Shown here piece by piece: positions 25,649 to 34,848 of a DNA stretch of 64,000 nt (position 1 is its first letter; the number at the start of each line of letters is the position of its first letter). Under the pieces are notes generated by a model. The model was not told the DNA's origin. It worked only from the letters and a program-made list of their open reading frames with translations, and made no database searches. A program made the position numbers and the translations under genes. Source of the stretch: Dyadobacter sp. 676 (GTDB taxonomy: Bacteria > Bacteroidota > Bacteroidia > Cytophagales > Spirosomataceae); the NCBI RefSeq assembly GCF_040448675.1, contig NZ_CP159289.1, forward strand, positions 7,051,001-7,115,000. Direction: 5' to 3'.

Positions 25649-25677
25649 TTTTCAGCAATTATTCACCCACGAATACG

Positions 25678-25712
25678 GGCCGGTCCGGAGTGATTCCGGG
25701 CCGGCCTTTTTT
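25678..25712 (+). terminator. Rho-independent terminator of katG
   Basis: A 12-base stem (GGCCGGTCCGGA with TCCGGGCCGGCC, one G-T wobble), five-base loop, then six T. It ends at the stop codon of the convergent acyl-AMP ligase gene (25711). Confidence 0.85.
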
Positions 25713-27252
25713 ATTTCCCGCGAGCGACCTGCATCCGGAGTTTTGTATAGTCTATTTTGGAATTGTGCCGCGGGTCCCTGGGGATTTTGGGTACAAAAAT
25801 AACCTCGTCCGGCACCACCGGCAGTTCGCTCACAGCCGCCCTGACCCGGGCGGGGTCAGCGGCCGGGTCCAGCTCGACGACAGCGGCCAGTTTGTTATCC
25901 AACATCATTACGGTTCCCATTTCCACGCCTTCAATAGCCTGCAAATGGTTTTCAAAAAGAAATGTCGACAACAACCCGTCGGTCGTGCGGATCAAAGATG
26001 TGCAGCGGCCCATCAGAAAGAGGTTACCATTTGCATCGAAGAAACCGCTGTCGCCCGTCCGGTGCCAGCACTGGTCGCCTATGAAAATTTTATTGCGTTT
26101 GAGCGCTTGCGGATTATGGAGGTAATCCCGCAGAACATGTTTTCCCGAGACGATAATCTCGCCGATCTCCCCTTGTTGTAATTCCAGGACAGCCAGCTCC
26201 CCCGGAGTGGAAGCAGTAATCTCGCCGTCGCGGATTCCGATAATTCTGACCATCGCACCCGGCTCGGTTTTCCCTACTTTCAATCCCTTACCCGTATCTG
26301 CGACTATCAGCTCGTCGGCAGCGATCACGGTCATTGGCTCCGCTTCTGTAGAGCCATAGACGATACGGATCGAGGCATTGGGGAATGCATTCCGGTAGCT
26401 CTTCGCTTCGCTGGGGAAAACCGGCGCGCCGCCGGTGAGTATTTTCTGTATACTATTCAAAACCAAACCGTTATCCAGCAAATACCGGGACAATCGCTTA
26501 ACAAAGAACGGCGACGCGATGACCGTACGGACACGGTGCCGGCTGATCTGAGCAGCGATCGTAGCCGGCTGCATGGTATCGGGTTTCCGCGGATTAAATC
26601 CTGCGATCACCGACGTTACACCCGCGCCCAGGTTGATCAGCAGAACTATCGGCAAAACCGGCATGCAAACTTCCTCCTGTTGCGCGTCGATAAGCGGCAA
26701 CAATGCCTGGAATTGCTCGTGCAGCAAGCCGTGCGTTCGAATGGCCGCTTTGGGAATGCCTGTGCTTCCCGTCGTGAATGTGATCAGTGCGACGTCGGCC
26801 CGCCCTGTTTCAGGAAAAACCGGCACAGGCAAGCCGGCATCGTATTGCACGCCCAAACGCAACGGAATAGACCGCAATCCGGGCAGCAGCCACGCCAGCA
26901 GCCGGCCCTTAAAGGTGCCGATAAACGCCCTGCATTGCGCCAACCGGCAGCATTCGTTCAGTCTTCCTGCCCTCACCCATTCATCCAGAAACACCGCCAC
27001 CGCCCCAAGCCGAAGCAGCGCCAGCACGACCCGGTACAGATCGGTGCTCATCGGAACAAACACCAGCACACGATCCCCTTTACCGATACCTTTATGTGCA
27101 AGATGCGCGGCCATCCGTATTACTTCCTTTTCGAAATCGCCGAAGGAGACCGCCTGGTCCCGATAAATGATCGCGGCCTTCCCCGGATGCGCTTGTGCGG
27201 CGTCATGAAAAAGATCGACCACATTGAAATGTTCAGCGGATTGGCCTGCCAT
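25711..27252 (-). CDS. Acyl/aryl-AMP ligase (ANL superfamily)
   Basis: 513 residues. The AMP-forming signature is TFTTGSTGIPKAAIRTHG (near residue 160), then YGSTEAEPM and HRTGDSGFFD, with a likely C-terminal catalytic lysine in SKIDYTKLR. ANL enzymes activate a carboxylic acid as an acyl-adenylate. There is no fused carrier protein or reductase, so the acyl group must go to CoA or directly to a partner. It is the last gene of the seven-gene operon and overlaps the GNAT-like gene by 20 bases. A fatty acid or an isoprenoid acid is a plausible substrate. Confidence 0.88.
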   Translation of the reverse strand: MAGQSAEHFNVVDLFHDAAQAHPGKAAIIYRDQAVSFGDFEKEVIRMAAHLAHKGIGKGDRVLVFVPMSTDLYRVVLALLRLGAVAVFLDEWVRAGRLNECCRLAQCRAFIGTFKGRLLAWLLPGLRSIPLRLGVQYDAGLPVPVFPETGRADVALITFTTGSTGIPKAAIRTHGLLHEQFQALLPLIDAQQEEVCMPVLPIVLLINLGAGVTSVIAGFNPRKPDTMQPATIAAQISRHRVRTVIASPFFVKRLSRYLLDNGLVLNSIQKILTGGAPVFPSEAKSYRNAFPNASIRIVYGSTEAEPMTVIAADELIVADTGKGLKVGKTEPGAMVRIIGIRDGEITASTPGELAVLELQQGEIGEIIVSGKHVLRDYLHNPQALKRNKIFIGDQCWHRTGDSGFFDANGNLFLMGRCTSLIRTTDGLLSTFLFENHLQAIEGVEMGTVMMLDNKLAAVVELDPAADPARVRAAVSELPVVPDEVIFVPKIPRDPRHNSKIDYTKLRMQVARGK

Positions 27253-28243
27253 ACAATAGATAGTTTCTGTAATTGCTTCCCGAAAAATGCGCGGAAAGCT
27301 TCGTCGAAGTGCCCTGCTCGTAGATAAACGAATGAATAGCGCTGGTGTACCCGAGTTCGAGGGCTTTGCGGTAAATCACGTTACCGATCACATGGCCCAG
27401 TCCGCTCCATTCGGGCGCCGGGTGCCGCGCCAGGGTTTTTACGATCAAAGATTTATTAACAGTGTTATAAAAATCGCGAATGCAGAAAAAATAGCCGACC
27501 AATCCCCCGCCGGCCTCCTCGGCAAGCAACGTCAGTTCCGGATCGATCAGCCCTTTTACCTGCATGTATTTTTTCATAAATGCTTCCCTGCCGATCGGCG
27601 TATAAAGGAAGTTGGTTTTGAATGCGAGCAGATTGAAATCATAAATCCGTGAGATTTCCGCTTCGAAACCTGAAAGATCTATCGGCCTGATCGTCATACC
27701 TTTGGCTTTCAGATCCATTTCCCGGGCAAGTATTTCGGGGTTATCCGGCTCCAAACCATAGTCAATATTGCTGAAATACCGCGCAATGGGTTCAAAACCC
27801 ATCTTTTTGAACTGGTCGTTATAGTACAAATGATGGTATGGCTCCGTGAAAAACAATGGATTGTTCTGATCGGCCAGGAACCGGTAGCTCTCCCAGGTAC
27901 TGCCGTTCATCGGCCCGATAAGATATTCTCCACCCCTCTTTTTAACATTCGAAATAATATGGTCCAAAAGCTCCCGCGCACATTCGTCACGCACGGCACA
28001 TTCGTAGTTCCCGACCAGGAAAGTCCTCTGACCGGCATATCGGATAAGCGGGTTGTCGTAAACGGCCGCCCTGGCGACGATAGTCTCGCCATCTTTCAGC
28101 AGATAACAGGCTGTGAGAAAATCGGTCGGTACGGTGTCTGGCGTTTTAAACCGCATGCTGTCCGCGGGATAAATGTCCCTCAGCATTTCCGTAAACAAAT
28201 GGAAATCAGACCGGTCGGGACCGGTTTCGATAATGCCCGTCAT
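27233..28243 (-). CDS. GNAT-like acyltransferase
   Basis: 336 residues with a GNAT-type layout: the opening MTGIIETGPDRSDFHLFTEML, then TIVARAAVYDNPLIRY, VGNYECAVRDECARELLDHI, and a second GNAT-like half ending GNVIYRKALELGYTSAIHSF. Similar long proteins are found with lipid and peptidoglycan modification genes. It overlaps the kinase-like gene upstream by four bases and the ligase downstream by 20, so it is made with them. It could be the transferase that uses the activated acyl group from the ligase; that link is inferred from position only. Confidence 0.7.
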   Translation of the reverse strand: MTGIIETGPDRSDFHLFTEMLRDIYPADSMRFKTPDTVPTDFLTACYLLKDGETIVARAAVYDNPLIRYAGQRTFLVGNYECAVRDECARELLDHIISNVKKRGGEYLIGPMNGSTWESYRFLADQNNPLFFTEPYHHLYYNDQFKKMGFEPIARYFSNIDYGLEPDNPEILAREMDLKAKGMTIRPIDLSGFEAEISRIYDFNLLAFKTNFLYTPIGREAFMKKYMQVKGLIDPELTLLAEEAGGGLVGYFFCIRDFYNTVNKSLIVKTLARHPAPEWSGLGHVIGNVIYRKALELGYTSAIHSFIYEQGTSTKLSAHFSGSNYRNYLLYGRPIR

Positions 28244-28902
28244 AATACCAGCCAGAGGATTGTTGCTACGCTCGCCGGGATCGTCAGGTTGTCCATGCCT
28301 TTAATTCCCAATGCTTCGGAAACGGTTGCCGTAACCGGAACCGTCAGGCAGAGCCTCTTTCCCGATTGAGTGATCCCGAGCATGTCGACCACAATGACCG
28401 TCACCGCGACCGCCGCGATGAAAAATGCCGCCGAGCCCGATGCGGATTTGCCACAACCGCATATCCGGTACCTGCCGAGCGGGAAACGTTTTCCCGCCAA
28501 TGCGGCCAGCGGGTCGCAGACAGCCAGGATCAGGATCGGGAGATAAAACACGATCAGGCCTTTTCCAGCCATCCGGAATACTACAAAAAGTGCATAAACG
28601 ATTACCGGGAACAATATGCTCCCGTACGAAAGCCGGTCGATAGCATTGATCGAGGGCAGCCAGCCAAACCGCAGGCTGGCCAGCAGTATCAACAGAAAGC
28701 TGCCGCACAGGAACAGCACCTGCCAATGGCTGACGAGCACCAGCGGAAAAAGCAACGTCAGCAGTCCTGTACCGGTGTGAACGATTTTACGCGTCCATTC
28801 CGCCCGTACCTTCCCAAAGTGGTAAAGCAGCTCGGCCACGCCGAACAAGGCCAAAAAGCAGGCTGCGAGAACAAGCGGAGGGACTATTTCTTTCGGTGTC
28901 AT
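28240..28902 (-). CDS. Dolichol/phytol-kinase-like (CTP-transferase fold) membrane protein
   Basis: 220 residues, about six hydrophobic spans. RAEWTRKIVHTGTGLL near residues 34-48 is the recurring R-K-x-x-H motif of the SEC59/VTE5 (dolichol kinase, phytol kinase) group related to CdsA phosphatidate cytidylyltransferase; a later ILAVCDPLAALAGKRFP carries the conserved D-P-x-A-x-x-x-G. Such enzymes move the phosphate of CTP onto an isoprenoid alcohol. In an operon with HMG-CoA reductase and a UbiA enzyme, an isoprenoid-alcohol kinase role is a reasonable inference. It overlaps both neighbours by four bases. Confidence 0.75.
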   Translation of the reverse strand: MTPKEIVPPLVLAACFLALFGVAELLYHFGKVRAEWTRKIVHTGTGLLTLLFPLVLVSHWQVLFLCGSFLLILLASLRFGWLPSINAIDRLSYGSILFPVIVYALFVVFRMAGKGLIVFYLPILILAVCDPLAALAGKRFPLGRYRICGCGKSASGSAAFFIAAVAVTVIVVDMLGITQSGKRLCLTVPVTATVSEALGIKGMDNLTIPASVATILWLVL

Positions 28903-29994
28903 TTCACGGTGTCAATGATGAATTCCTTGTAAAAAAAGCCTCTATCGATCGCCGTCAACCGCGCGGCCTCGGCCTGGTTACAGGTTACGGCTTCCGGTAG
29001 TATTTCTGAAATCCGCCGTGGTACCATCAGGTTCCAGTAAGCCAGCCTGCCTCCCGGTTCGGTGCCGTCGATAAGCCTAAGGGCTGTCTTTGCGAACAGT
29101 TCGGGGTCCATATATTCGAAAATATCCGACAGATTCATACAATGAAACCTGCCGTACCGGCCGATTGCCGCCTGAGCGTAGCCTTCCTGCAAATGCAGCC
29201 TGTCCAGATTGCGGCGGATCATCCCGTAATTCTCTTTTTGAAGATAATGCGGCAAAAGTCGGTCAAAGCCGCCAGTCAACGTGTACCGTAAAATAAAGTT
29301 ATCCTGTGCAGCCACCGAGGCGAGCTGGCCGGCGGCTTTCTCGAATATGAATTTTGAAACGGAGCCGCGAACCTGTTTCTGAAACTCGGGATCGCGCCCG
29401 TATCTGCCCATCACATATTTGCTGAAAAAAAAACGGAAAAGAAGCCGCCAGCGCCAGGTATTCCATTTTTGATGGTAAAAATGGGCTTGCTCCACCGGCG
29501 GTTTTGGTGCAAAAAAGACCGTCGATAACCCGCTTCGAGTGAATCCATGGCAGGATTTTGCCACTGAATAATTGAAAATACCGCTCGAATTTCCCCTGGT
29601 GGATAACCCCGCCCCGGATCATCGCCAGGTTCGATTCCCAATATGCTTTTGCCTCGCTGGTCAACTGGCCTTTCAGCGACCGGAAGCATTTCTCCCGGTC
29701 GCCGGCGGCGTGAAATCCCAAAAACGCCAGTGCTTCCTCCCATTCGAGATTCCGGATACAGACCTTTTTCAGTTCGATCAGAAAAAGCTGGATACGGTTC
29801 ACATCGACGGCAACGACCATTTCAGGGTCTCCGGCCAGACACGAAAAACTGTTATCTCCCGCCGATCCGATCGAGAGTACCCGCTTGCCCGGCCCCGGCT
29901 CAAGACCGGCCAGCAACACTTCGGCGTCCTCCCAGCAGTTGGCATACCGGATAATTTCAAAATTGACTCGCTGCGTCAGATCGTCCCTTCTCAT
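28899..29994 (-). CDS. DUF3419 BtaA-like 3-amino-3-carboxypropyl transferase (frameshifted)
   Basis: About 364 residues after joining two frames. The N-terminal half has VNFEIIRYANCWEDAEVLLAGL and RVLSIGSAGDNSFSCLAGDP followed by VVAVDVN, the SAM-binding pattern of DUF3419/BtaA. That family transfers the 3-amino-3-carboxypropyl group of SAM to diacylglycerol to start betaine-lipid synthesis. The C-terminal part (YVMGRYGRDPEFQ, MNLSDIFEYMDPELF, RLAYWNLMVPRR) also fits. The frame changes at six A (29511-29516), where one fewer base joins HSKRVIDGLF to APKPPVEQAHFYH. Four-base overlaps on both sides place it inside the operon. Here the acceptor may be an isoprenoid or other lipid alcohol rather than diacylglycerol. 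Confidence 0.8.
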
Positions 29995-32603
29995 CGCGAA
30001 ACCCTCCTGATAATGCCCGTACTACCATCCATTTCGATCTCGTCCCCGGTTTTCAGCACTTTCAGTAACCCCGTCACGCCTACAATGCATGGTTTACCCA
30101 TCTCCCGGGAAACGATCGCCGAATGGCTCAGCAGACTGCCGCGCTCGACGATAATGCCCAGAGCGCCGGGAAAGAGCGTCACCCATCCGGGATCGGTACT
30201 GGAAGTCACGAGAATATCGCCATTCAACGAAGCAACCTCAGCCGGGTCCAGCACTACTCTCGCCTTTCCGGAAACCCTGCCGGGTGAACATCCGATTCCC
30301 TTCAATTCGCCGTCATGGGTTTCTACGCGGTCCATACTGAAAAAGTCGTTGCCATGGTAAGGCACGCCGTAGGTCGCAAACCGCTCCGAAAGGGCTCCCA
30401 GCCGGGTATATGTCTGAAACGCCGCTTTCCGCAATGCAACCAATGCCCCGACGTCCTGTGTTACCGCCGTCCCTTCTATATAGCTGAAAATCTCTTCTTT
30501 GGTGAGGTAAAAAATATCCCGTGGCTCGTCCAGCAGCCCGTTGGTGTAAAACCGCTTTCCTATAAACGTAAAAATCTCCCGCACGATCCCGAACGCCCGT
30601 GTGCGCTCGTAGCGCAGGTTCTCACGTGCACTTACAAGCTCACGCGCGTAATGAAGGGTGATCCGCATTTTCCACCGCCTCAGTGGCTTCCCTTTCAGGT
30701 ATTGTTTCATTTCCGCTTCCGCACGCAAGCGAATTACCTCCTCTCTTCCGCCCGAAATCTGTTCGGCGGTGATGCCGGTTTCCACATACGATTTCAGGAC
30801 TTTGATAAAACGGGCGGGCTCCTGGGCGTAGGACACCGTTTCCAGTTTCAGCTCGCCCACACAGCGTTCGCCGAAATCGGCGATATATCGGTCGATATCC
30901 GTTTTTACAGCCATCCAATCGGGCGAGGTCGCCGTTGCGAGCTTCTCGTGGATCGCGCATTCGTTTTCGGTCAGAAACAGGTCCCTAAGTGGGGCGATCG
31001 AAGCGATGCACGCCGCGATCGCGATGCTGCGGTGGACCGGTTGTACCGAAATAATGTCGTTGCTCCCGCAAAGCAGATCGTTATGCAGGTTCGGATTACA
31101 GCCATCGGTGATTTGTTCCGATTGTTTTTGCAGCATACCGAACCAGATCATCGCGAAAAAGTCGTTCAGCAGAGGGGCTTTCCATTCGAGCAGCAGTTTC
31201 CGTTCAAAATCGAGATACAAATGCATGAGCGCGGCAGCGTCCTTTTCTCCAAAGGGGATTGCCTTGTATTCGGCGATCGTACTCTCGACCAGCCGCATAA
31301 ACTGTCGCCGTTTCCGCGGAAGTGCCCAAAACCGAAAAAGCATCCGCACGACCATTTTTGAGATGCCCCACCAAGCTTTACCCTTCGTCAGGCGGTAAGA
31401 AGCCGGAATATCGAATTGCTCCTTCACTCCCATCATTTTTTCCATGAAACGGGCGTTGATACTGTAACCGGGCAGCATTGCCAGCATGTGATACCAGCTT
31501 TTAAGGTTATAGTAGACCCGGCCGTTAAGGAACCCCAGCGTATTGGCAAATACTCTTTCATTCCTTTTGATGACAGATGCGCTTACTCCGAGATAGGCGC
31601 TGAAAAGCTTGTAGGCCGTTTCATAGGATTTACTGATAAAGGAAAAAGTAAGCGGTGTCGTAACGCCGGGGTACGATTCGACGATATTGCTGTTATCCCA
31701 TAAAATATAATTAGCGGGCCGCCTGCCGGCGGTAATCAGCGTGGTAACCGGCCTGGTTTGAAGTAAGTAAATTTCCCCTTTCCTGATAGCGAACTCGATA
31801 TCCTGAGGCTGCCCCAGCTCTTTTTCGAGCTGGTCGAGAATTGCCCCGATGCGGTAAATCTGATCGTCCGTAAGCGCCGGCTTGTGCCGATCGGCCTGCG
31901 GTACGGGCTGTAAAACGACACCGGTTCCCTTTACGGCATCTTGCACCGACATTTGTGTTTTAATTACCGTTTTGGCCTGAATATCCCTGCTACTCAGAAC
32001 AAACTGGTCGGCATCCAGCTCTCCGGAAACCAGCCCGTCCCCCAATCCGAATACGGCATTGATCACCTTTTCCTTCCGGTTGCCCGTTACGGGATTCGCT
32101 CCGAAGGCGACCCCGGCAACATCCGCATCGATCATTTCCTGCACCACCACCCCTACGCCGGCCGGTCGGAGAAGCCCGTGATGGCGCCGGTAAGCGGATA
32201 CCCTCTCCGAAAACGCCGACTGCCAGACCTCTCTGATCCTGACCGCCAAATGCTGCCGGTTGACAAACAGGAAGCTTTCCAACTGGCCCGCGAACGAAAA
32301 TCCCTGCCCGTCCTCATCCACGGCCGACGACCGTACCGCATAATACGGCACATCTCCCAATGCTTGCGACAACGCCAGTATGAAGTCACAATCGATAACG
32401 ATCCCGTCCATACTACGTCGTAACGCCGTATGGTCGCCGATCAGAAGCGCCTCCGGCATACGGCCAAGCAACGATTCCCAGGGGATCACGGCGAACCGCG
32501 GGACCGGCATTCCCAGGTTCTTCAACCGGAAGAGATTCCCCGCTTTGCCGCCGACTGTGAAGTCCGCCGCTTTGTGTGATTCCGTATCGGAAATGAAGTG
32601 CAT
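29991..32603 (-). CDS. PEP-synthase/rifampin-phosphotransferase-like dikinase
   Basis: 870 residues from the ATG at 32603, which overlaps the UbiA stop by one base. The N-terminal third is a PPDK_N/ATP-grasp domain (VGGKAGNLFRLKNLGMPVP, YYAVRSSAVDEDG, QDIEFAIRKGEIYLLQTRPV). The middle ~400 residues have no recognised enzyme motif. The C-terminus is a phosphohistidine swivel domain (IIVERGSLLSHSAIVSREMGKPCIVG, catalytic His near 827). Length and order match rifampin phosphotransferase, which phosphorylates a small molecule rather than pyruvate; the PEP-synthase PEP-binding barrel appears absent. It may phosphorylate an isoprenoid alcohol or head group in this pathway. The frame is open upstream of 32603 but that stretch is antisense-like UbiA noise. 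Confidence 0.85.
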   Translation of the reverse strand: MHFISDTESHKAADFTVGGKAGNLFRLKNLGMPVPRFAVIPWESLLGRMPEALLIGDHTALRRSMDGIVIDCDFILALSQALGDVPYYAVRSSAVDEDGQGFSFAGQLESFLFVNRQHLAVRIREVWQSAFSERVSAYRRHHGLLRPAGVGVVVQEMIDADVAGVAFGANPVTGNRKEKVINAVFGLGDGLVSGELDADQFVLSSRDIQAKTVIKTQMSVQDAVKGTGVVLQPVPQADRHKPALTDDQIYRIGAILDQLEKELGQPQDIEFAIRKGEIYLLQTRPVTTLITAGRRPANYILWDNSNIVESYPGVTTPLTFSFISKSYETAYKLFSAYLGVSASVIKRNERVFANTLGFLNGRVYYNLKSWYHMLAMLPGYSINARFMEKMMGVKEQFDIPASYRLTKGKAWWGISKMVVRMLFRFWALPRKRRQFMRLVESTIAEYKAIPFGEKDAAALMHLYLDFERKLLLEWKAPLLNDFFAMIWFGMLQKQSEQITDGCNPNLHNDLLCGSNDIISVQPVHRSIAIAACIASIAPLRDLFLTENECAIHEKLATATSPDWMAVKTDIDRYIADFGERCVGELKLETVSYAQEPARFIKVLKSYVETGITAEQISGGREEVIRLRAEAEMKQYLKGKPLRRWKMRITLHYARELVSARENLRYERTRAFGIVREIFTFIGKRFYTNGLLDEPRDIFYLTKEEIFSYIEGTAVTQDVGALVALRKAAFQTYTRLGALSERFATYGVPYHGNDFFSMDRVETHDGELKGIGCSPGRVSGKARVVLDPAEVASLNGDILVTSSTDPGWVTLFPGALGIIVERGSLLSHSAIVSREMGKPCIVGVTGLLKVLKTGDEIEMDGSTGIIRRVSR

Positions 32604-33574
32604 CAATGGAACAACAGTTTTGAGATCATTGGTCCGCCGCCAAGCGTGAGATACATGGCAATCGTCCAGAACGCAGAGGCATATTCGATCATTTTTGAAA
32701 ACTTCACCGTCGGGGAACGCAGGAACAGCAAAGCCGGCAAGGCGCACAGCAGAAACACCGATCCCAGCACGGCAAGAACGGCAACGCCGTAACCGGCAAA
32801 AAGCGACGCCGCAATGCTCAGTAACCCCGTAGCGGTCAACGTTGCCAGCCACAGCCCCACCGCCCGCGAAATACCGAGCATGGATGTATACGTGAGTACT
32901 CCCTCGGATTCCTTTTCCGGCGCACGGATTTTCCTGCCGACTTCCAGCACGACGCCATTCATATAGGATACCGCAAAAAAGAATAACAGGCCTGCCGGAG
33001 CATCCGCATCTGCCAGGAGCCAGTCGAGCCCGCTGGCGTAGACATCGATGAGCGGTATGATGAACATATGGGATGCTACATACCAAAACTGATGTTTTTT
33101 CAGCCATTCGGCCACAAAGAACTCCTTTCCCATCAACAACAGGTACCCCATCACCACCGCGTAAATGGACAGCATACGGGGAAAGAAAACCAGATTTACC
33201 AGAATCTGCGCCGATGCGACGACAATTCCGGATACAGCGAGCTCCCGGAATGTGACCAGTCCGCGCGGAACGGGAAGCTCCCGCCGGAAGCGGGCGTCGT
33301 CGGCCGCGTCTTTGAACTCATCGAATATCCTCACAAGCAGGAAAAGCGATATCGTGGTAAAAATGCCCGTTGCAAATGTTTTGCCATCCACAAAACCTTC
33401 GCCCCCACGGCATATCCGCGAGTAGGAAATAGCCGAAAAGCTGAATGCGGCCACCAGCAGGCCGTGGCCCAATAACGGAAACCGCTCTTTTTGATAGATA
33501 TAAAGGCGACGGACGAGCGGCGCACTGTTCTCCCGCGCGTCGCTGTATTCGTTTCCCTGTGCCGGCAGCTTCAT
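32603..33574 (-). CDS. UbiA-superfamily prenyltransferase
   Basis: 323 residues, about eight hydrophobic spans. The first aspartate-rich motif is RIFDEFKDAADD (residues ~82-93), in a DEFKD-type variant rather than the NDxxD of UbiA itself; the second polar loop is GRKIRAPEKESEG. UbiA enzymes join a prenyl diphosphate to an acceptor inside the membrane. The acceptor is not evident. It overlaps HMG-CoA reductase by four bases and the dikinase gene by one. Confidence 0.88.
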   Translation of the reverse strand: MKLPAQGNEYSDARENSAPLVRRLYIYQKERFPLLGHGLLVAAFSFSAISYSRICRGGEGFVDGKTFATGIFTTISLFLLVRIFDEFKDAADDARFRRELPVPRGLVTFRELAVSGIVVASAQILVNLVFFPRMLSIYAVVMGYLLLMGKEFFVAEWLKKHQFWYVASHMFIIPLIDVYASGLDWLLADADAPAGLLFFFAVSYMNGVVLEVGRKIRAPEKESEGVLTYTSMLGISRAVGLWLATLTATGLLSIAASLFAGYGVAVLAVLGSVFLLCALPALLFLRSPTVKFSKMIEYASAFWTIAMYLTLGGGPMISKLLFH

Positions 33575-34848
33575 TTCTTCCGGCCGAATTTCTTGTGTGC
33601 GGCCGAAAATTGCCCGGCCGACAATGCTGCCGCAATCGATATTTCACCGGCCAGCACCACAGCCCCGCATATTTCGGCGAACTTCCGCGTGTTACCGGCG
33701 CCATAGCACCCCAGCAGTTCCAGACATTCTCTTTGCGTAGGCAGCGAAGTTCCGCCGCCTACCGTGCCGACGATCAGGTTAGGCAGCGTTACCGAAACAT
33801 ATAAACCGCCATCGTCCGTAAGTTCCATGCGTGTAATACCTACAGACGCCTCCGAAACGCAGGCGACGTCCTGCCCCGTGGCGATGAAGAGCGCCGTCAG
33901 GCCGTTGGCATAATGGCCCTGTGCCCCAATGGCGCCACTCTGTATGGTACCGATCGTCGACGACCGCCAGTAATCCGCCATGGCCTCCGGTGTTGTCTTA
34001 AGCACCTCATGCACAACCCGTTTCGGAAGTGCTATTTCGGCCGTTACTTTCTTGCCCCGCACATTGGCAAAAGAATGCGAAGTCGCCTTCTTGTCGCCGG
34101 AAAAATTACTCTCGATAAACCAGAATTGCGGCTGCACTGGCGCATTTTGGATAATATGCTGGCAGATGGCGTCGGTACAGATCGTCACCATGTTTTGCCC
34201 CGAAGCATCACCCGTGTGGTATTCGAATGTCAGGATAAGGTGGTTTCCCTCGACGTTGGATTTCATGTCGATCAGCTTCGCGAAACGGCTCGTCCGCTCG
34301 GTAATGCGGTGGAATTTGTCGATCTGGCCCAGTATCCAGACCAGAAAAGTACCCAGATTCCCGAGATTGTCGAATTTGAAAACCGGCGACCTTTGTACAC
34401 CGTCGATCAGGCACACCGAAGTAGCTCCACCCGCCAGATAGCAGGCCTTTGCCCCGCGATGGTACGAGGCCAGCAAACTGCCCTCGCTCGTTGCCATCGG
34501 CACATAAAAGTCGCCCTTCGCCATCGATCCGAGCACCGACACCGGCCCGATCACACCGGTTGGCACCAGCGACATTCCAATGTAATTCTCGATGTTCCCT
34601 TCCAGAGCCGAGAGCTCCGAAAAATGCTTTTCTCCGCTCAGATAAGGAAAATCGCTGCCGGTCTTGTTCAGCAAAAACGCAAGCCTTTTCCGAATTCCGT
34701 CCGGAGAGACCGGTATCTCGGCAGGCAAATTCTCCGGCGGTTCCTTACTTGCAGGCTTTTTCCTTATGTCCTCCAACAACTGTTCGAGATTTTGCAAAGC
34801 ACTCATGGCACGTAGTGCTTTCTGTGTGGTTTCACTGGATGAGGACAT
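33571..34848 (-). CDS. Hydroxymethylglutaryl-CoA reductase
   Basis: 425 residues. All four catalytic residues of the family are visible: Glu122 (MATSEGSLLAS), Lys253/254 (GDKKATS), Asp327 (IATGQDVAC) and His418 (SAAHKKFG). ENYIGMSLVPTGVIGP and TVGGGTSLPTQRECLELLG are further signatures, closer to class I than to the degradative class II enzymes. It makes mevalonate from HMG-CoA with NADPH. No other mevalonate-pathway gene is in this window. It is the first gene of the operon; the ~95 bp upstream to the hydrolase gene hold no clear consensus promoter. Confidence 0.95.
   Translation of the reverse strand: MSSSSETTQKALRAMSALQNLEQLLEDIRKKPASKEPPENLPAEIPVSPDGIRKRLAFLLNKTGSDFPYLSGEKHFSELSALEGNIENYIGMSLVPTGVIGPVSVLGSMAKGDFYVPMATSEGSLLASYHRGAKACYLAGGATSVCLIDGVQRSPVFKFDNLGNLGTFLVWILGQIDKFHRITERTSRFAKLIDMKSNVEGNHLILTFEYHTGDASGQNMVTICTDAICQHIIQNAPVQPQFWFIESNFSGDKKATSHSFANVRGKKVTAEIALPKRVVHEVLKTTPEAMADYWRSSTIGTIQSGAIGAQGHYANGLTALFIATGQDVACVSEASVGITRMELTDDGGLYVSVTLPNLIVGTVGGGTSLPTQRECLELLGCYGAGNTRKFAEICGAVVLAGEISIAAALSAGQFSAAHKKFGRKK

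What the first reader, a model, noticed from the sequence alone, without database searches (positions are those of the whole stretch)
25711..34848. Seven-gene overlapping operon combining HMG-CoA reductase, UbiA, a dikinase, a BtaA-like transferase, a dolichol-kinase-like protein, a GNAT-like transferase and an acyl-AMP ligase
All seven genes read leftward with overlaps of 4, 1, 4, 4, 4 and 20 bases, so they are almost certainly one transcript. Each part fits a step in making an unusual isoprenoid-derived lipid: mevalonate supply, prenyl transfer, phosphorylation, aminocarboxypropyl or betaine head-group addition, acyl activation and acyl transfer. I know of no described pathway with this set. 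I cannot exclude that it has been described under another name.
Basis: partly seen in the sequence, partly recalled or inferred. Interest (0 to 1): 0.9.

Follow-up and report, generated by a model that had tools for sequence, protein, structure and literature searches.

The report
Conserved seven-gene lipid-type operon
A Dyadobacter genome carries a tight run of seven genes, kept together in the same order in many Bacteroidota and on one alphaproteobacterial plasmid, that probably builds an undescribed lipid-like molecule, perhaps with mevalonate as a building block rather than as an isoprenoid precursor.

Summary
In detail: seven leftward genes with overlaps 4, 1, 4, 4, 4 and 20. One correction: the DUF3419 (BtaA-like) gene is broken in the window by one extra T in a T6 run. 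It is intact in 9 of 9 congeners and two other homopolymer frame breaks lie in the window, so an assembly error is likely. The gene set is a real unit: of the best 80 of 315 GTDB stretches found with the UbiA family, 56 hold all seven genes in the same order, and an alphaproteobacterial plasmid carries all seven. In 13 of 80 loci the cluster also contains a CdsA-like and a CDP-alcohol phosphotransferase gene, which points to a phosphate-containing lipid. "Mevalonate supply" for isoprenoids is not supported: 20 of 23 carriers have the MEP marker DXR and 22 of 23 lack HMG-CoA synthase. My best reading is a dedicated pathway for a lipid-like product in which HMG-CoA reductase makes mevalonate as a building block, activated by the AMP ligase and transferred by the GNAT, as fungal SidI/SidF do. 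No product is known; the step order is inference. None of the papers listed by ten full-text searches describes this gene set.

The parts
33571..34848 (-). gene A: class I HMG-CoA reductase-like, 425 aa
   Evidence: PF00368 E=2.6e-116; E87, D252, K253, D327, H418 invariant in 70 of 70 copies examined
32603..33574 (-). gene B: UbiA-superfamily membrane prenyltransferase-like, 323 aa; first Asp motif DExxDxxxD kept, second motif replaced by ExxRK...E
   Evidence: PF01040 (E up to 0.1) in 21 of 22 family members, not in the window copy; only PDB profile hit DGGGP synthase 6m31, E=0.0026; motif residues invariant in 81 of 81
29991..32603 (-). gene C: PPDK_N + PEP-utilizer dikinase, 870 aa
   Evidence: PF01326 and PF00391; best NCBIfam match PEP synthase PRK06241.2-2, 749 bits, cut-off 883; H827 invariant in 70 of 70
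29299..29994 (-). gene D, first part: DUF3419 (BtaA-like) up to the frame break
   Evidence: PF11899 E=6.3e-34
28899..29564 (-). gene D, second part, in another frame after the break at about 29511
   Evidence: PF11899 E=1.6e-20; single ORF in 9 of 9 congeners; one extra T
28240..28902 (-). gene E: dolichol-kinase/CTP_transf_1-type membrane protein, 220 aa
   Evidence: PF01148 (E up to 0.1) in 6 of 20 family members, not in the window copy; R38 K39 H42 D130 K152 D204 N205 invariant in 65 of 65
27233..28243 (-). gene F: GNAT-type acyltransferase-like, 336 aa
   Evidence: PF00583 (E up to 0.1) in 13 of 20 family members, not in the window copy
25711..27252 (-). gene G: AMP-binding acyl-adenylate ligase, 513 aa, nearest PRK09274 and the OleC models
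   Evidence: PF00501 E=4.2e-46; PRK09274 342.6 bits, below its cut-off 478; K168, E303, D401, R416, K499 invariant in 55 of 55
25677..25707 (.). GC-rich hairpin between the operon's end and a convergent ORF; terminator-like, the T tail is on the + strand
   Evidence: 14-pair stem (18 such sites found in the region against 12.3 expected); operon-strand fold z=-2.94

Best explanation
The seven genes form one dedicated biosynthetic pathway for an undescribed membrane-associated lipid-like product. Shown: the gene set, its order, its spread and invariant motif residues. Inferred: HMG-CoA reductase (A) turns HMG-CoA into mevalonate, which is kept as a building block and not turned into isopentenyl diphosphate. 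The AMP ligase (G) activates that (or another) acid as acyl-AMP, and the GNAT (F) places it on an amine. The amine would come from DUF3419 (D), which like BtaA would transfer the 3-amino-3-carboxypropyl group of SAM to a hydroxyl. UbiA (B) attaches a prenyl chain; the dikinase (C, ATP) and the dolichol-kinase-like protein (E, CTP) phosphorylate hydroxyls. In a subset, X2 (CdsA-like) and X1 (CDP-alcohol phosphotransferase) take the lipid phosphate through a CDP-lipid to a phospholipid head group. The step order is a proposal only.
For: Order A-G conserved in 56 of 80 loci, in 8 of 36 congeners and on the Roseinatronobacter sp. S2 plasmid, where HMGR appears to run across the record origin and is not in the gene table. 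HMG-CoA synthase (PF08540) absent in 22 of 23 carriers, while the model does find G056; DXR present in 20 of 23. HMG-CoA-lyase-like proteins in 29 of 29 genomes but all below the cut-off, and the control shows that weak matches to this model are common, so HMG-CoA from leucine breakdown is possible, not shown. X1 and X2 together on the cluster strand in 13 of 80 loci, one or both on the opposite strand beside it in 3 more. START-like gene H in 12 or 13 of 80 loci. Mevalonate to SidI (ligase) to SidF (transferase) is the fungal precedent (passages of PMC3709128).
Against: No product, substrate or phenotype is known. No SidI or SidF sequence was compared, and no SidH-like hydratase is among the seven genes. 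HMGR is not beside B in L090, L091, L099 and L122 although about 10 kb lies upstream, nor within 2.4 kb in L130; it is elsewhere in the genomes of L090 and L122, was not found in that of L091, and was not sought in those of L099 and L130. In Dyadobacter G013 only 37 aa of HMGR remain while B, C, D, F and G stay open. X1/X2 are a minority feature; X1 has only weak Dyadobacter matches (X2 not tested). Two recalled HMG-carboxylate contacts of human HMGR (S684, K735) are replaced (E246 and S) in the window enzyme and changed in order-level relatives too, so another acyl-CoA substrate is possible. The absence of mevalonate kinase is not firm: 0 of 31 genomes pass the cut-off, including G056, which looks like a mevalonate user.
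Confidence: 0.45

Rival explanations
1. Ether-lipid pathway of archaeal type: B works as a DGGGP-synthase-like enzyme on a prenylglyceryl phosphate, E/X2/X1 act like the CDP-archaeol and head-group steps, and the rest decorate the lipid.
For: Only PDB hit of the B profile is DGGGP synthase; X2 matches a CDP-archaeol synthase model weakly and X1 archaetidyl-head-group models weakly; GGGP synthase family present in 23 of 24 Bacteroidota genomes tested.
Against: GGGP synthase occurs in 17 of 18 carriers and in 6 of 6 non-carriers tested, so it does not track the cluster; B's second motif is replaced; X1/X2 are absent beside most clusters; HMGR, C, D, F and G have no role in that pathway.
Confidence: 0.2
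2. Soluble or pigment-like prenylated secondary metabolite, not a membrane lipid.
For: Patchy presence (HMGR-bearing cluster in 9 of 37 genomes of the genus counting the window); dikinase also matches, far below cut-off, prodigiosin ligases PigC/RedH and rifampicin phosphotransferase; P450 gene beside one cluster.
Against: The CTP_transf_1-type protein E was detected in 66 of 80 loci and CDP-lipid genes in a subset; both are typical of membrane lipids.
Confidence: 0.2
3. Homoserine/betaine-type lipid head-group operon used under phosphate shortage.
For: D belongs to PF11899, the family of BtaA, and shares WED and SAM-loop motifs (read by eye) with the S. meliloti BtaA-like gene that sits before a SAM methyltransferase.
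Against: None of the seven genes is a methyltransferase and none is evident among the widely recurrent flanking families (flanks were not scanned with Pfam as a whole; one methyltransferase is inserted in L055). Two kinase-type genes and CDP-lipid genes argue against a phosphorus-saving lipid. BtaB was not sought elsewhere in the genomes.
Confidence: 0.1
4. HMGR supplies mevalonate to the ordinary mevalonate pathway for prenyl diphosphates.
For: Class I catalytic residues intact; three carriers (G349, G377, G258) lack DXR.
Against: 20 of 23 carriers have DXR and 22 of 23 lack HMG-CoA synthase, the three without DXR included.
Confidence: 0.05

Closest known systems
Fungal siderophore module SidI - SidH - SidF fed by mevalonate
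   Same: mevalonate is activated by a CoA ligase and the derived acyl group is moved to an amine by an acyltransferase (PMC3709128, passages; that HMGR makes the mevalonate is recalled)
   Different: no sequence comparison made, no SidH hydratase or ornithine oxygenase among the genes; this cluster adds UbiA, DUF3419, a dikinase and a kinase-like protein
BtaA/BtaB betaine-lipid pathway
   Same: DUF3419 family, WED and SAM-loop motifs
   Different: no N-methyltransferase among the seven; six other conserved genes
Archaeal/FCB ether-lipid pathway (GGGPS-DGGGPS-CarS)
   Same: UbiA protein nearest DGGGP synthase among PDB sequences; CdsA/CDP-alcohol enzymes in a subset (PMC7852524, passages)
   Different: GGGPS is elsewhere and in non-carriers too; unusual second motif; HMGR, dikinase, DUF3419, GNAT and ligase are extra
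ebo cluster with UbiA-297/EboC
   Same: conserved UbiA-bearing operon of Bacteroidota (PMC9235831, parts 1-2 of 4 read)
   Different: its partners EboA, TatD-like hydrolase, dehydroquinate-synthase-like and TIM-barrel proteins are not among these seven genes
PEP synthase, prodigiosin ligase PigC/RedH and rifampicin phosphotransferase
   Same: PPDK_N and PEP-utilizer domains as in gene C; PEP-synthase model PRK06241.2-2 is the best match
   Different: below every cut-off: 749 of 883 bits for PRK06241.2-2, about 300 of 999-1350 for the others

Membership tests
Class I HMG-CoA reductase | PF00368 match and catalytic Glu/Lys/Asp/His (human E559, K691, D767, H866; numbers recalled) | tested here: met
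   E87, K253, D327, H418 in 70 of 70
Class I HMG-CoA reductase | HMG-carboxylate contacts S684 and K735 (recalled) | tested here: not met
   E246 and S at these places in the window; order-level relatives also differ
Mevalonate pathway | HMG-CoA synthase in the genome | tested here: not met
   PF08540 absent in 22 of 23 carriers, found in G363 and in non-carrier G056
Mevalonate pathway | mevalonate kinase in the genome | tested here: inconclusive
   0 of 31 over cut-off, likely mevalonate user G056 included; 27 of 31 have some match
BtaA (DUF3419) | PF11899 domain over the full length | tested here: met
   (two halves, window); for the plasmid copy, residues 10-362
BtaA/BtaB betaine-lipid operon | N-methyltransferase in the operon | tested here: not met
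   none among the seven genes; genome-wide BtaB not sought
BtaA | aminocarboxypropyl transfer from SAM to diacylglycerol | not testable with these tools
   needs enzyme assay
UbiA superfamily | PF01040 match | tested here: met
   21 of 22 members at E up to 0.1, best 4.8e-14 (not the window copy)
UbiA superfamily | two Asp-rich motifs | tested here: inconclusive
   first motif invariant in 81 of 81; second replaced, E211 R214 K215 E222 invariant in 81 of 81
Dolichol kinase / CTP_transf_1 | PF01148 match | tested here: inconclusive
   6 of 20 members, best E=6e-05, window copy not among them
ebo cluster | EboA, B, D, E partners in the operon | tested here: not met
   the seven genes belong to other families; Ebo proteins themselves were not searched for
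SidI/SidF | sequence membership | not tested
   no SidI/SidF sequence compared; F matches only general GNAT models among the better hits

The most novel reading that the evidence does not exclude
A widespread, unrecognised bacterial pathway that takes HMG-CoA (for instance from leucine breakdown), reduces it to mevalonate and builds that six-carbon unit, with a SAM-derived aminocarboxypropyl group and a prenyl chain, into a new class of membrane phospholipid. This would be a mevalonate fate apart from isoprenoid synthesis in bacteria that use the MEP pathway.
Probability: 0.3. Interest if true: 0.9.

Novelty: new variant of a known kind. Interest (0 to 1): 0.72.

Why it matters
A gene set kept in fixed order across many Bacteroidota and found on an alphaproteobacterial plasmid usually makes something useful to the cell. 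B homologues occur in 12 families by record label (MAG labels may be wrong). No paper listed by the searches joins these enzymes in one pathway. If the reading holds, it explains why Bacteroidota with the MEP marker DXR carry an HMG-CoA reductase with intact catalytic residues, and it gives a direct target for lipidomics: named strains exist (for example Dyadobacter fermentans JDP9, D. soli DSM 25329, Sphingobacterium and Parapedobacter strains).

Tried and rejected
Rejected: loss of the catalytic lysine in HMGR, my first impression from a mis-set motif; the printed alignment to human HMGR showed the DKK motif intact. Rejected: HMGR absent from the alphaproteobacterial cluster, as the gene table suggested; a six-frame search found it in two pieces on either side of the record origin. 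Rejected: identity with the ebo/UbiA-297 operon or with the lipocone operons (passages of PMC12419801). Rejected as informative: GGGP synthase co-occurrence. Not conclusive: mevalonate kinase and HMG-CoA lyase models. The tree of B is a quick tree, its careful search unfinished, with a very long branch for the plasmid copy. A structure model of D from congener L016 (mean pLDDT 92.2) was made but no fold comparison could be run, so it adds little; F was never modelled.
Full report
Observation. The seven ORFs lie at 33571-34848 (A), 32603-33574 (B), 29991-32603 (C), 29299-29994 with 28899-29564 (D), 28240-28902 (E), 27233-28243 (F) and 25711-27252 (G), all leftward, and the overlaps are as stated. 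D is broken: two PF11899 halves in different frames, one extra T at about 29511 against 9 of 9 congeners. Of 30 ORFs of congener G035 matched to the window, 3 change frame in the window; the other two changes lie near a T7 run (about 41940) and a G6 run (about 61345). The genome is one contig with 95.3% completeness, where 34 of 36 congeners have 99-100%. I read the break as a likely assembly error, not proven.

Families. A is PF00368 (E=2.6e-116); C has PPDK_N and PEP-utilizer domains; D is DUF3419; G is AMP-binding. B, E and F of the window have no Pfam match of their own. Among aligned cluster homologues, at E up to 0.1, 21 of 22 B proteins match UbiA, 6 of 20 E proteins match CTP_transf_1 and 13 of 20 F proteins match GNAT. 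The B profile's only PDB hit is DGGGP synthase, E=0.0026. C's best NCBIfam match is a PEP-synthase model, 749 bits with cut-off 883. G is nearest PRK09274 and the OleC models, below cut-off.

Conservation. HMGR as query found close full-length homologues in 8 of 36 congeners and each of the 8 holds all seven genes in order. A ninth, G013, has a 37-aa HMGR remnant and a frame change in E. The four order-level HMGR loci (L024-L027) hold no other cluster gene within the fetched 19 kb. Six non-carrier congeners tested have no DUF3419 match. In the class, 23 of 395 genomes, the window's included, have a B match, two of them weak; 20 regions were fetched and 15 hold all seven genes. In GTDB genomes, 315 stretches encode a B relative and the best 80 were fetched, partly the same genomes: Dyadobacter, Sphingobacterium, Parapedobacter, Rhabdobacter, Botryobacter, Fluviicola, Saprospiraceae, Chitinophagales, Microscilla and others. 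Of these 80, 56 hold A-G complete in order on one strand: 46 plain, 8 with H between F and G, 2 with H before A. Of the other 24, 14 are cut by the end of the locus or contig. The remaining ten depart: no A beside B in L090, L091, L099 and L122 (about 10 kb of room) and L130 (2.4 kb of room); only B in L118 and L126; D 20 kb away in L120; no G in L097; no E detected in L103 and L130. L110 has an insertion between C and D. HMGR lies on another contig in the genomes of L090 and L122; HMGR and DUF3419 exist beyond the fetched flanks in those of L118 and L126; none was found for L091, and L099 and L130 were not tested. L126 is labelled Chlorobi, but its B sits among Crocinitomicaceae in a quick tree, so mis-binning is possible.

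Beyond the phylum. tblastn with D against plasmids gave 13 records; the best, Roseinatronobacter sp. S2 plasmid unnamed3, has UbiA, PEP/pyruvate-binding, DUF3419, a 439-aa protein, a 281-aa protein and an AMP-binding protein in a row. Profiles identify the two unnamed ones as E (with a longer C-terminal membrane part) and F. HMGR pieces lie on both sides of the record origin directly upstream of B. So all seven are there in the same order, at 33% (D) and 35% (B) identity.

Active sites. Copies on the expected strand and at least 85% of the window's length were checked: A 70, B 81, C 70, E 65, F 54, G 55; D was not in this check. The residues examined are invariant except H312 of A (69 of 70) and three F positions (53 of 54 each). 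Human residue numbers and the roles of the motif residues are recalled. Two HMG-carboxylate contacts are replaced in the cluster HMGR and in order-level Bacteroidota HMGRs, among them that of G056, which has HMG-CoA synthase and no DXR; this does not by itself exclude HMG-CoA.

Extra genes. Clustering of 642 flanking ORFs of the 80 loci shows three most widely recurrent extra families: X1, PF01066 CDP-alcohol phosphatidyltransferase, 15 loci; X2, PF01148 CdsA-like, 15 loci; H, Polyketide_cyc2/START-like, 12 loci (13 by tblastn) (Pfam). X1 and X2 lie together on the cluster strand in 13 of 80 loci, 12 between A and B and one (L121) between C and D; L115, L119 and L124 have one or both on the opposite strand. 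The 16 genus members tested have only weak X1 matches. E, X2 and X1 together would be the classical order lipid-OH, lipid phosphate, CDP-lipid, phospholipid (established knowledge).

Isoprenoid supply. Among 23 carriers (the decayed G013 included), DXR is present in 20 and HMG-CoA synthase in 1, G363. The synthase model does find a Bacteroidota case that lacks DXR, G056. Mevalonate kinase: 27 of 31 genomes have some match, none over the cut-off, so nothing can be concluded. HMG-CoA-lyase-like proteins occur in 29 of 29 genomes, all below the cut-off; the model also gives matches in all 14 control genomes.

Mechanism. I commit to a dedicated lipid-type pathway with mevalonate as building block (confidence 0.45). 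I am surer that the genes make one product (about 0.9) and that it is lipid-like (about 0.7) than of the mevalonate step (about 0.45) or of any step order (about 0.2). The fungal SidI/SidF route is the analogy for A, G and F. Its acceptor here, an amine placed by D, is inference.

Literature. Ten full-text searches listed no paper that appears to treat this gene set; lists were capped (20 of 159 papers, 5 of 27). Read: PMC9235831, parts 1-2 of 4; passages of PMC12419801, PMC7852524 and PMC3709128; all others as listings only. Papers outside the open library were not searched.

Noticed in passing
window about 41940 and about 61345: Two more genes change frame against congener G035 near a T7 and a G6 run, suggesting residual homopolymer indels in this assembly.
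   Followed up: partly
L028:8228-16821: Dyadobacter genome G013 carries a decaying copy: HMGR reduced to 37 aa and a frame change in E, other genes open.
   Followed up: partly
window:23375-25648: Catalase-peroxidase (KatG)-like ORF (name recalled, not scanned) convergent with the operon; a similar ORF lies after the cluster in 8 Dyadobacter loci.
   Followed up: no
L189:1-523 and L190:3-527: HMGR of the Roseinatronobacter plasmid lies on both sides of the record origin and is missing from the gene table.
   Followed up: partly
L053:2624-3997 and L057:16941-18449: Cytochrome P450 and a dolichyl-phosphate-mannose mannosyltransferase-type gene directly follow the cluster in two genomes.
   Followed up: no
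L017, L018, L019, L020, L021 gene C: Dikinase is 825-827 aa in five congeners against 870 aa in the window; cause not examined.
   Followed up: no
L215:2381-3630: BtaA-like gene of S. meliloti Ak57 is unannotated and reads as two ORFs, followed by a SAM methyltransferase.
   Followed up: no
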